A stretch of DNA of 30,841 bases from a virus. The position numbers and the translations under genes were made by a program. The notes beneath the pieces are model-generated. The model was not told where the DNA came from, did not search any database, and worked only from the letters and a program-made list of their open reading frames with translations. This document shows positions 5,171-8,270 of this stretch, one piece after another. Location: positions 1 through 30,841 of IMG/VR virus record IMGVR_UViG_3300001460_000113, one strand, 5' to 3'. How positions within the stretch are numbered: the first letter of the stretch is position 1; every line of letters starts with the position of its first letter.

Positions 5171-6655
5171 TTAAAAGGTCAGTTGGGCGTTAGCATATAA
5201 GTTATTGCCCAACTGCATACTATGCTTTTGTAGATAGTGATAGTCTAATGTCGAGCCCATTCCCCCACCAGATCTCCTACCTGCTACTGCAGAAGAACTG
5301 GTTGTTGTGCTATTGTTTCCAAGTTGACCTATAATAATATTATTATTTCCACCACCTGTTTTGTTTAAAGACATCAGATCGTTTTCTAGTCTTGTCTTGA
5401 TACTACTCTGAAGCGCGCTTTCTTGAAAGCCACCAGCTACTTTACTATAAACTGAATAAAAGTCATCAGGGTTAGTAAGATCCCGATCTTTCCTTTCAGC
5501 AAGTAACACCATAGCCGCTCTCATTTGGTCAAAGCGAACATCACTGTTTGATTCACCCTTTGTATTTTCAAATGCTGCTTGACCACCCAAACGTGCAGAT
5601 GCCATAACATTTCGGATGGTAGGACTTAATTTAGTAACTACTTCTTGATTATCATAAGCCTGCGAATAAGCTAATCCTGCTTTACCAGAATTTATTACTG
5701 CTAAACGTCTTGCGAATCGCTCAGATTCTTTTACTGCTTCAGCCATGGCAGATGTATCGCCTGTCGCGCGAGCGGCTTGAAATTTTGTGTTAGCTTCTGC
5801 AAGTGCGTCAACAAGATCTTGTTCAGTTTCTTGTCTACGCTTATTCATCCAGTCTATTAGTGCTTTGCCGGCATACCCTACCAGTGCTGCTATCCCTAGT
5901 ACTATTGCACCCTTTGGACCCAAGAACATAAGTCCAGCAGCTGCTATTGCTGCAGAGCCAGAAATAGCTTCTCCCATTTGTTCACTTCCAGTTAGTCCAC
6001 CTATATAATTTCCTAATGCATCACCAGCAAATCCAAGTATAGCTGCTAACCCCAATTTCCCAATAAAGCTCTTTCTAATAGCGGGGCCCTTAGTGTCTCC
6101 TTTACCAAAGAACGCTCCTTGAACAGCCGTGGCAATTAATTTCTTTGAGAATAGCGCTGCTAATCCTACCCCTAATCCTGCTACTAACTTAGACGCATCA
6201 AACTCTTTACCAAACATTTCCCAAGTAGCGTTTTCTCCAAGTATCTTATCTAATGTAGGACTTATCCACTTATCGACATACTTGGCTCCAAAGAATGCAG
6301 CAAGTGCTGGAAAGAATAATCTTCCGATACCTTTACCAATGATTCCTCCTATAGTTGCTCCACCTAGTAGGCCAGCACCACCACCAAAGCCTCTTAGCAT
6401 ATCGCCTATACTAGCAATACCTGTACCTTGTGCAATACCTTGCTTAAAACCTTTGGCAGGCTCTTGACGTGCTTTAGCTTTGGCATTAGACTTTTCACGA
6501 CGAAGTTCTTCCTTATCACCCTTATTGGATTCTTCTTTTTTGCGACGTTTCTGATCTTCGGACAGCAATGCTTTAATACTATCTTTAACATCAACTAATG
6601 TATTGTTCTGTAGTTGTAACTCGATTACAACTTGGTTTAATGATGTGGTAGCCAT
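5171..6655 (-). CDS. Probable tail tape-measure protein (gp29-position)
   Basis: 494 residues. The N-terminal section contains a highly charged helical segment (about 28-70, EDQKRRKKEESNKGDKEELR). A long glycine/alanine-rich hydrophobic region follows with several membrane-like helices (GGATIGGIIGKGIGRLFFPA, LVAGLGVGLAALFSKKLIAT, GPKGAIVLGIAALVGYAGKA). Next come charged helices (DLVDALAEANTKFQAARATG) and a Gly/Asn/Ser-rich C-terminus. This profile, and the position directly after the chaperone-like pair, is typical of tape-measure proteins, which set tail length and help DNA entry. T4 gp29 has 590 residues. No direct similarity to gp29 is claimed. At roughly 1.5 A per residue it implies a tail of about 75 nm (inference). 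The last codons contain the 5180-5215 hairpin. Confidence 0.65.
   Translation of the reverse strand: MATTSLNQVVIELQLQNNTLVDVKDSIKALLSEDQKRRKKEESNKGDKEELRREKSNAKAKARQEPAKGFKQGIAQGTGIASIGDMLRGFGGGAGLLGGATIGGIIGKGIGRLFFPALAAFFGAKYVDKWISPTLDKILGENATWEMFGKEFDASKLVAGLGVGLAALFSKKLIATAVQGAFFGKGDTKGPAIRKSFIGKLGLAAILGFAGDALGNYIGGLTGSEQMGEAISGSAAIAAAGLMFLGPKGAIVLGIAALVGYAGKALIDWMNKRRQETEQDLVDALAEANTKFQAARATGDTSAMAEAVKESERFARRLAVINSGKAGLAYSQAYDNQEVVTKLSPTIRNVMASARLGGQAAFENTKGESNSDVRFDQMRAAMVLLAERKDRDLTNPDDFYSVYSKVAGGFQESALQSSIKTRLENDLMSLNKTGGGNNNIIIGQLGNNSTTTSSSAVAGRRSGGGMGSTLDYHYLQKHSMQLGNNLYANAQLTF
5180..5215. terminator. Convergent hairpin, possible bidirectional terminator
   Basis: CAGTTGGGC (5180-5188) and GCCCAACTG (5207-5215) form a perfect 9-bp stem with an 18-nt loop, just after the gp32 stop and inside the last codons of the minus-strand tape-measure gene. 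On the minus strand it is followed by ACCTTTTAATTT, a weak T tract. On the plus strand the downstream tract is poor. The long loop and short T tracts make it a moderate candidate, but the convergent position is where a terminator is expected. Confidence 0.45.
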
Positions 6656-6658
6656 ATC

Positions 6659-6847
6659 TTACCCTTGCATTTGGTTCTTTGCGTTTTGTTCTCGTTCGTC
6701 TTTTAGTTGTTGTAATAACATCTCTAAATAAATCTCCCTTTCCCATGGTATCATATTTTCAATATTGTCTAATGAGTACTGATGGTTTTGCATCAATTGA
6801 TAATTAGTTTGATAGTAGTTCATTAAACTTTCATGTGAAAGGGCCAT
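6659..6847 (-). CDS. Small downstream frame of tail-chaperone pair (GT-like extension)
   Basis: 62 codons from an ATG overlapping the upstream TAA (TAATG), in the -1 frame relative to the gp26/gp51-like gene. The protein is helical and hydrophilic (SLMNYYQTNYQLMQNHQYSL, then MIPWEREIYLEMLLQQLKDE, then REQNAKNQMQG). The PWEREIYLEMLL stretch resembles segments found in downstream tail-chaperone frames of other phages, from memory. There is no Shine-Dalgarno at initiating distance: the nearest, AAGGAA at 6869-6864, is 16 nt from the ATG. It may be expressed by reinitiation or, more interestingly, only as a -1 frameshift fusion of about 299 aa. The tape-measure gene starts 3 nt after its stop. 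Confidence 0.75.
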   Translation of the reverse strand: MALSHESLMNYYQTNYQLMQNHQYSLDNIENMIPWEREIYLEMLLQQLKDEREQNAKNQMQG

Positions 6848-7557
6848 TAAAAAAAATCTTGTATTCCTTGTAGTGTAATTGTATTCTCATGTTTACAAGA
6901 AGAACATGTGAAGTTAATATCATGTTCTAATCGAGGTATATTATTCACAAATTTCATAATATCATCTAATTGTTGAGTATTCAATCCTTCTAAGAAATTT
7001 TCTATTTCGTCTCTGGTCTCATCATTAAACCTTATAATATCTTCTTCTGTTCTTAATTCATCAAGGCACATTATTATCATTTCAAAAATAGAGTCTGTTA
7101 ATGTTTCTTCCTCATCAGGATTTGGTTGTAATAGTATTGCCGAGTATTGAGGATACTTCATTATCAATGTAAACTTATCACTAAGTTGTATGCTTTTATT
7201 TACACCAGCAATTTCTATTTTAACTTCATCTAAATTTACTACTACAGTCGTTTCCTCTTCACACGCTGAACAAGATAAATTTACTTTTGTTGTTTCTCCT
7301 GCACTCCTTGCTCGTATTTGAGTAAAGATATATTCAATATCAAAAGTAGTTAATGATTCAGATTTTATCTTATCAGTTACGCACGACTCAATAGTATTCA
7401 CTATTGCTTTTAATATCTGTTTTTCATCTTGCGATTCTAACGCTATTAACAAAACTTTTTGTTCTTTTACTAAGAACGGTCTGTATGAAATTGTCTTTCC
7501 TGTTGATGGTATTACAAGTTCATAATTTGGATGTTCATTCAGTTTAGGCAAAGCCAT
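6847..7557 (-). CDS. gp26/gp51-family baseplate hub/tail chaperone protein
   Basis: 236 residues. The N-terminus (YELVIPSTGKTISYRPFLVK, EQKVLLIALES, then ESLTTFDIEYIFTQIRARSA) matches my knowledge of the T4 baseplate family containing gp26 and gp51. Those proteins function in central hub formation, gp51 as an assembly catalyst. Two CxxC pairs (C96/C99 and C218/C221) could together bind one zinc. The second pair lies near the C-terminus, just before the frameshift candidate. The order tube-like protein, this gene, a -1 frame and a tape measure equals that of lambda-type G/GT tail assembly chaperones. AAAGGA provides a Shine-Dalgarno. Which of gp26 or gp51 it corresponds to cannot be decided. 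Confidence 0.75.
   Translation of the reverse strand: MALPKLNEHPNYELVIPSTGKTISYRPFLVKEQKVLLIALESQDEKQILKAIVNTIESCVTDKIKSESLTTFDIEYIFTQIRARSAGETTKVNLSCSACEEETTVVVNLDEVKIEIAGVNKSIQLSDKFTLIMKYPQYSAILLQPNPDEEETLTDSIFEMIIMCLDELRTEEDIIRFNDETRDEIENFLEGLNTQQLDDIMKFVNNIPRLEHDINFTCSSCKHENTITLQGIQDFF
6849..6869 (-). promoter_or_regulatory. Candidate programmed -1 frameshift site
   Basis: On the minus strand: AAGGAA (6869-6864), 7 nt, then eight consecutive T (6856-6849). Reading frame 0 is GAT-TTT-TTT-TAA. A slip of one base back on T-TTT-TTT reads TTA (Leu) and then the ATG of the 62-aa frame, bypassing the stop. The upstream Shine-Dalgarno-like element is at a distance known to stimulate -1 slippage in bacterial dnaX. 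No other TAATG junction inspected in this window has a homopolymer run of this kind before the stop. Confidence 0.55.
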
Positions 7558-7568
7558 TTTATAATCCT

Positions 7569-8270
7569 TTAAAATATATTATTCACAAATCCTACCAATG
7601 TGTTTCTAATTTGAGATATAAATGCATCTTTTATATTAGTTGGTGATAGTACAAATGGGGTCTCCCAGTTTGTATAAGAAAGTTGAATGTTTAGCTCTAC
7701 GATGCCATCGAGCTCATTGTTTAATTGAACAGCAGTCATTGAGGATGGAAATGCATCGATCAGCTTACATTTATATACTACTAAATCATCAATCTGATCA
7801 CCTAGGTTAAAAAACTGTTGAATTATATCAAAATCACTTAATCTTGGTAATAAAGAATTGTCAAATTCTTCTGTAAATCTATCTGGTAGTCTAACTACTT
7901 TTTGGAATTGCTCAATCTCAATGTCCCGAGCATACTCACTCTGATATCCTACTTCTTTTGTTTGTTGGTTAACTGCAAGGTTCTGCCATGTTTCAAAATA
8001 CTCTTTGATTCCGTAATTATTCATTACATGAAAAGTTACACTAATGTCATTAACAGAATAACCATATGGGACTTTTTCTAGTTGTAAACCAATGCGTCTC
8101 TCATTTGTCATTATTTGCCGGCCTGGTAACTGAACATCCTTACATAGAATATTTACTTCTTCTGAACTTGCACCTGCTAAAGATGGAAACTTAATCCTAA
8201 ACAGATTAGTTCTAGCGACACCACCTTTGGCACTTACTAAACTTTTAAATTGATCTATTGATGAGACCAT
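7569..8270 (-). CDS. Tail-tube-fold protein (gp54/gp19-like)
   Basis: 233 residues. The segment NLFRIKFPSL, then ILCKDVQLPGRQIMTNERRI, VPYGYSVNDISVTFHVMNN and YFETWQNLAVNQQTKEVGYQ has the pattern of T4-like tail tube and tube-initiator proteins: an N-terminal strand, a short LPGR loop, a beta hairpin, and a helix with a tryptophan. T4 gp19 is 163 aa and gp54 320 aa, so length does not settle which it is. With gp4 and baseplate genes beside it and no gp18 sheath gene in view, gp54 (tube initiator on the baseplate) is the better guess. It starts through a TAATG junction with the upstream gene. Confidence 0.65.
   Translation of the reverse strand: MVSSIDQFKSLVSAKGGVARTNLFRIKFPSLAGASSEEVNILCKDVQLPGRQIMTNERRIGLQLEKVPYGYSVNDISVTFHVMNNYGIKEYFETWQNLAVNQQTKEVGYQSEYARDIEIEQFQKVVRLPDRFTEEFDNSLLPRLSDFDIIQQFFNLGDQIDDLVVYKCKLIDAFPSSMTAVQLNNELDGIVELNIQLSYTNWETPFVLSPTNIKDAFISQIRNTLVGFVNNIF

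What the first reader, a model, noticed from the sequence alone, without database searches (positions are those of the whole stretch)
6659..7557. Probable programmed -1 frameshift fusing the gp26/gp51-like protein to a 62-aa extension
Seen: frame 0 ends GAT-TTT-TTT-TAA with eight T in a row (6856-6849, minus strand). The 62-aa frame lies in -1 and begins with an ATG overlapping the stop. Slipping one base on T-TTT-TTT yields TTA-ATG and continues to a 299-aa fusion. AAGGAA sits 7 nt before the T run, too far (16 nt) to initiate at the ATG but well placed to stimulate slippage, as in dnaX. Other TAATG junctions inspected (226, 1616, 2184, 8270, 20286) lack a homopolymer run. Known: lambda G/GT and many other tail chaperone pairs use a -1 shift just before the tape-measure gene. 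As far as I recall, T4-like phages are not described as doing so.
Basis: partly seen in the sequence, partly recalled or inferred. Interest (0 to 1): 0.85.

Follow-up and report, generated by a model that had tools for sequence, protein, structure and literature searches.

The report
Frameshifted tail chaperone in marine phage
A T4-like marine phage appears to make a longer version of its tail-building helper protein by having some ribosomes slip back one base on a run of Ts, a trick used by most long-tailed phages and already reported for several T4-like groups.

Summary
Comparative evidence strongly supports a programmed -1 frameshift. An in-phase T_TTT_TTN site lies near the end of the gp26-like frame in 137 of 142 distinct homologous junctions (49 lineages at 70% identity). 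The downstream frame is always -1, under purifying selection, and usually lacks its own start codon. It is the only in-phase T_TTT_TTN in 28 window genes. T4, with a non-slippery TTC-TTT, instead carries separate gp26 and a full-length gp51 that matches the fusion profile across the junction. The gp26-like N-terminus resembles the HK97 tail assembly chaperone. So these are the short and long tail assembly chaperones (TAC-N and TAC-NC, the lambda G/GT equivalent), upstream of a likely tape-measure gene. The kind is known: Vladimirov et al. 2022 described T4-like TACs, and a 2025 paper cites T-run frameshift signals in their TAC-N genes. The AAGGAA stimulator is not supported here, and no downstream structure is apparent. 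The AUG overlapping the stop is a minority feature, absent from the closest relatives. No expression data exist.

The parts
6847..7557 (-). gp26-like ORF, 236 aa: short tail assembly chaperone (TAC-N); PF12322 T4_baseplate, phrog_150
   Evidence: fold match to HK97 TAC
6850..6856 (-). slippery heptamer T_TTT_TTT in frame 0 (part of the T8 run 6849-6856)
6847..6849 (-). frame-0 stop TAA that ends TAC-N
6659..6850 (-). -1-frame C-terminal extension (TAC-C): TTA Leu then 62 aa and stop; phrog_634 positions 58-118 and phrog_150 positions 237-282
   Evidence: purifying selection in the -1 frame across relatives
6659..7557 (-). inferred fusion TAC-NC, 299 aa, by -1 shift at 6850-6856
6845..6847 (-). 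ATG overlapping the stop (TAATG); start used by a conventional annotation of the 62-aa ORF; absent from the closest relatives
6864..6869 (-). AAGGAA, SD-like; stimulator role not supported by the recoding test in this window
5171..6655 (-). 494-aa ORF directly downstream, probable tape measure protein (position; counterparts in some relatives match tape-measure families weakly)
   Evidence: inference
7569..8270 (-). tail tube protein gene directly upstream (phrog_45)

Best explanation
The two ORFs are one tail assembly chaperone gene. Most ribosomes stop at UAA and make the 236-aa short form (TAC-N). A minority slip back one base with both tRNA-Phe on U_UUU_UUU, read UUA AUG GCC... and make a 299-aa long form (TAC-NC) whose C-terminal domain is encoded only in the -1 frame. 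By analogy with lambda gpG/gpGT, many short and few long copies would coat the tape measure protein made from the next gene, and the extension would recruit tail tube subunits. Shown: sequence, phase, conservation, selection, homology to the single-ORF T4 gp51, partial fold match. Inferred: that slippage happens, its efficiency, and the chaperone role in this phage.
For: In-phase T_TTT_TTN (C 100, T 26, A 10, G 1) in 137 of 142 distinct junctions, mostly 2-4 codons before the frame-0 stop. All 49 lineages (70% identity clusters of those 137) keep base T before the first Phe codon and TTT as first Phe codon, whereas only 7 of 148 Phe-Phe pairs elsewhere in the same loci have that form. The extension is always -1, 53-71 aa. 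In 35 of 49 lineages (110 of 137 sequences) there is no ATG, GTG or TTG from the preceding -1-frame stop to codon 5 after the slip. Substitutions in the extension fall 66% on third positions of the -1 frame, as in TAC-N itself. The 62-aa ORF matches both phrog_634 and the C-terminal end of the gp26 family phrog_150. T4 gp51 matches a fusion profile across the junction at E 1.9e-11, against 9e-4 and 1.7e-3 for the two halves alone, while T4 gp26 and its relatives encode the same Phe-Phe as non-slippery TTC-TTT. Predicted TAC-N residues 1-96 match 3FGX, HK97 TAC 2OB9 and YqbN 3KLU at Z 7.6-7.9.
Against: No expression data. In the window the stop overlaps an AUG, so the 62-aa product could also be made by reinitiation. 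No clear stimulator: the SD-like element is unremarkable and downstream folding is weak (z -0.4). One relative, Vibrio phage K469, lacks the canonical heptamer. The fold match is moderate (Z below 8) and covers only the N-terminal domain.
Confidence: 0.93

Rival explanations
1. Two separate proteins: the 62-aa ORF is translated by termination-reinitiation at the overlapping UAAUG, with no frameshift.
For: The window and 13 of the other 48 lineages have an ATG, GTG or TTG at or before codon 5 of the -1 ORF; public records annotate gp51 as a separate gene.
Against: The closest relatives, L001-L005 at about 65% identity, have TAATAA or TGATAA instead of TAATG and no ATG near the junction. 35 of 49 lineages have no start codon near the junction. 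The slip site would not need to be conserved. T4 encodes the fusion as one ORF.
Confidence: 0.04
2. RNA polymerase slippage on the T8 run adds a base to part of the mRNAs, giving the same fusion by ordinary translation.
For: Eight Ts in the window approach the run of 9 reported as slippage-prone in vivo (PMC5009743).
Against: Most relatives keep the phase-specific T_TTT_TTC with only 6 Ts (100 of 137), short for that mechanism but a fitting ribosomal slip heptamer.
Confidence: 0.02
3. The T run is a sequencing or assembly error in what is really one continuous ORF.
For: Homopolymers are error-prone; L178 and L179, near-identical phages, differ by one T at this site.
Against: The same two-frame arrangement recurs in 137 distinct junctions from many sources, including isolate genomes of cyanophages, Vibrio, Aeromonas, Rhizobium and Acinetobacter phages.
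Confidence: 0.01

Closest known systems
T4-like phage tail assembly chaperones, gp26 (TAC-N) and gp51 (TAC-NC); Vladimirov, Gautam and Davidson 2022, Virology 566:9-15 (paper not readable here; known through PMC10885494 and PMC12846349 and, for details, from memory)
   Different: This is a further, uncultured marine phage; it has an AUG overlapping the stop and an 8-T run. T4 itself uses two genes and no slippery site.
Phage lambda G/GT
   Same: -1 frameshift near the end of the short chaperone gene, long minor form, next gene tape measure
   Different: Different slip sequence; no sequence relationship was looked for or seen here; the ratio of about 30:1 is measured in lambda only (PMC5009743)
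HK97 tail assembly chaperone (PDB 2OB9) and YqbN (3KLU)
   Same: N-terminal fold of the predicted TAC-N
   Different: The window protein is longer, with an added C-terminal half carrying two CxxC pairs
Vandenendeviridae and Andersonviridae TAC locus (PMC12846349)
   Same: T-rich -1 signal (GTTTTT) at the end of TAC-N, no -1 stop across genomes
   Different: Different phage families; their signal is GTTTTT rather than T_TTT_TTN

Membership tests
Tail assembly chaperone pair TAC-N/TAC-NC (lambda G/GT type) | short ORF followed by an overlapping or abutting ORF in the -1 frame with a slippery site near the end of the short ORF | tested here: met
Tail assembly chaperone pair TAC-N/TAC-NC (lambda G/GT type) | extension not independently initiated (conserved lack of start codon) | tested here: inconclusive
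   met in 35 of 49 lineages, but the window itself has an AUG at the junction
Tail assembly chaperone pair TAC-N/TAC-NC (lambda G/GT type) | TAC-N fold | tested here: met
   top three structural matches of the N-terminal domain include HK97 TAC 2OB9 at Z 7.7 and YqbN 3KLU at Z 7.6; moderate Z, so supportive rather than conclusive
Tail assembly chaperone pair TAC-N/TAC-NC (lambda G/GT type) | location between tail tube gene and tape measure gene | tested here: inconclusive
   tail tube gene directly upstream. The downstream 494-aa gene has no direct tape-measure match, but downstream counterparts in ValKK3, P-HM1 and phiM19 match tape-measure families weakly
Tail assembly chaperone pair TAC-N/TAC-NC (lambda G/GT type) | low-level production of the fusion protein | not testable with these tools
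   needs a reporter assay or proteomics
Tail assembly chaperone pair TAC-N/TAC-NC (lambda G/GT type) | binding to tape measure and tail tube proteins | not testable with these tools
   needs biochemistry
T4-like gp26/gp51 families | sequence homology to gp26 (PF12322) and gp51 | tested here: met
   PF12322 E 1e-59, phrog_150 1.3e-61, phrog_634 5.4e-23; T4 gp26 6.9e-24 and T4 gp51 1.9e-11 against the family profiles

The most novel reading that the evidence does not exclude
In this phage and the minority of lineages with an AUG at the junction, the same UUUUUUUUAAUG would serve two purposes: -1 slippage to make TAC-NC and reinitiation to make a free TAC-C domain, giving three chaperone products from one locus.
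Probability: 0.12. Interest if true: 0.45.

Novelty: new member of a known kind. Interest (0 to 1): 0.27.

Why it matters
It supports reading the gp51-like ORFs annotated as separate genes in cyanophages and many other T4-like phages as the C-terminal part of a frameshifted chaperone. It also shows a clean natural contrast, because T4-type phages that split the two forms into separate genes lack the slippery codons while keeping the Phe-Phe. It would correct annotations in many genomes, but the mechanism itself is already described.

Tried and rejected
SD-like AAGGAA as stimulator in the window: 51% of synonymous recodings are as strong. Across 49 lineages the upstream element is only modestly stronger than recoded controls (median fraction 0.21, 10 of 49 below 0.05, no correction for relatedness). 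Downstream stem-loop: window z -0.4; 18 of 49 lineages below -2, mean -1.4, so not a general feature. No solved structure is a close sequence relative. No relative of the downstream 494-aa gene among phage records; only metagenomic relatives. The Vladimirov 2022 paper is not held.

Full report
What is there. The window is an uncultured 30.8-kb virus fragment carrying a T4-like tail and baseplate module: head closure, DNA end protector, tail tube, gp26-like protein, 62-aa ORF and a 494-aa ORF on the minus strand, and tube cap and wedge genes on the plus strand. The gp26-like frame ends GAT-TTT-TTT-TAA within eight Ts at 6856-6849. The 62-aa ORF 6847-6659 is in the -1 frame, and a one-base backward slip on T_TTT_TTT gives a 299-aa protein.

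Is it more than chance? Among 28 main genes (9,290 codons) of the window this is the only in-phase T_TTT_TTN. Eighty relatives of the gp26-like protein in IMG/VR, further loci from four more scans and 16 annotated phages were examined with one script. Of 142 distinct junctions, 137 have T_TTT_TTN in frame 0, nearly all 2 to 4 codons before the stop. Clustered at 70% identity, these 137 form 49 lineages. The base before the first Phe codon is always T and the first Phe codon always TTT. In the same genes only about 70% of Phe codons are TTT and 50-73% of Asp, Asn and Ser codons end in T. Elsewhere in the same loci only 7 of 148 Phe-Phe pairs have this form. The five exceptions are three T4-type phages, one variant with five Ts whose near-identical sister has six, and Vibrio phage K469.

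The extension. It is in the -1 frame in all 137, and its sequence is conserved in the marine group (SHxSLxNYYxxNxxLMxxHxYSLxxxExMxPWEREIY). Between similar sequences, 66% of the substitutions fall on third positions of the -1 frame, the same pattern as in the gp26-like gene. In 35 of 49 lineages, and in 110 of 137 sequences, no ATG, GTG or TTG lies between the preceding -1-frame stop and codon 5 after the slip. The first start then lies 8 to 32 codons in and would cut off conserved residues. The ATG that overlaps the stop in the window is absent from its closest relatives, which read TAATAA or TGATAA.

The fusion exists as one ORF in T4. T4 gp51 (249 aa) ends in a segment homologous to the 62-aa ORF. 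A profile of the inferred fusions matches T4 gp51 across the junction at E 1.9e-11, better than either half alone (9e-4, 1.7e-3). T4, Melville and ZX14 gp26 keep the Phe-Phe motif but encode it TTC-TTT, which is not slippery, and the next gene is gp25 rather than an extension. So where the long form has its own gene, the slip site is absent. The PHROG gp26 family model itself ends with a stretch that the 62-aa ORF matches (positions 237-282).

Function. The predicted structure of the gp26-like protein (mean pLDDT 86) has, in its first 90 or so residues, as best solved matches 3FGX (an uncharacterised Bacillus protein), the HK97 tail assembly chaperone 2OB9 and YqbN 3KLU (Z 7.6 to 7.9). The scores are moderate, but an unguided search ranked a known chaperone second. 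The gene directly downstream has no direct family match, but its counterparts in ValKK3, P-HM1 and phiM19 match tape-measure families weakly. The gene directly upstream is the tail tube. This is the lambda G/GT setting; in lambda, gpG and gpGT are made at about 30:1 and load the tape measure and tube subunits (PMC5009743).

What is not supported. The AAGGAA element is ordinary for its codons (51% of synonymous recodings are as strong), and no stable structure follows the site in this phage (z -0.4). Across lineages the upstream element is only modestly enriched.

Prior knowledge. The 2016 review still listed T4 as the exception to the widespread tail frameshift (PMC5009743). Vladimirov, Gautam and Davidson (Virology 2022) then identified the T4-like TACs. 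PRFect (PMC10885494) cites them for T4-like phages that carry separate short and long genes, and the phage Adele paper (PMC12846349) cites them for T-rich -1 signals in T4-like TAC-N genes. From memory, the abstract says that frameshifting is conserved in several T4-like groups and that T4 uses genes 26 and 51; I could not read the paper.

Noticed in passing
L089 3640-3670 (Vibrio phage K469): This relative lacks T_TTT_TTN (ACG CTT TTT GCG TAATGATGG) yet keeps a -1 ORF of about 60 aa with an overlapping ATG; it may use a weaker slip site or reinitiation. Several similar Vibrio phage records exist.
   Followed up: no
L178 and L179 at about 3249: Two near-identical Stenotrophomonas-type phages differ by one T (6 against 5) exactly at the slip site; real variation or a homopolymer sequencing error.
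   Followed up: partly
window 6847-7557: The gp26-like protein has two CxxC pairs (C96/C99 and C218/C221), a possible zinc ribbon, lost in several cyanophage-like relatives such as L032 and L042.
   Followed up: no
L083 3783-3887 and other annotated phages: Public annotations give the -1 ORF as a separate gene with an arbitrary, often truncated start (for example 34 aa in phage C48C1), never as a joined CDS in the records opened here.
   Followed up: partly
L088 downstream of 3813: Vibrio phage ValKK3 shows strong predicted structure just after the slip site (z -4.3), unlike the window; some lineages may have a structural stimulator.
   Followed up: no
window 5171-6655: The probable tape measure protein has no relative in the annotated phage collection and only metagenomic ones (L014-L017, L001, L003), so it appears to diverge faster than its chaperone.
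   Followed up: partly
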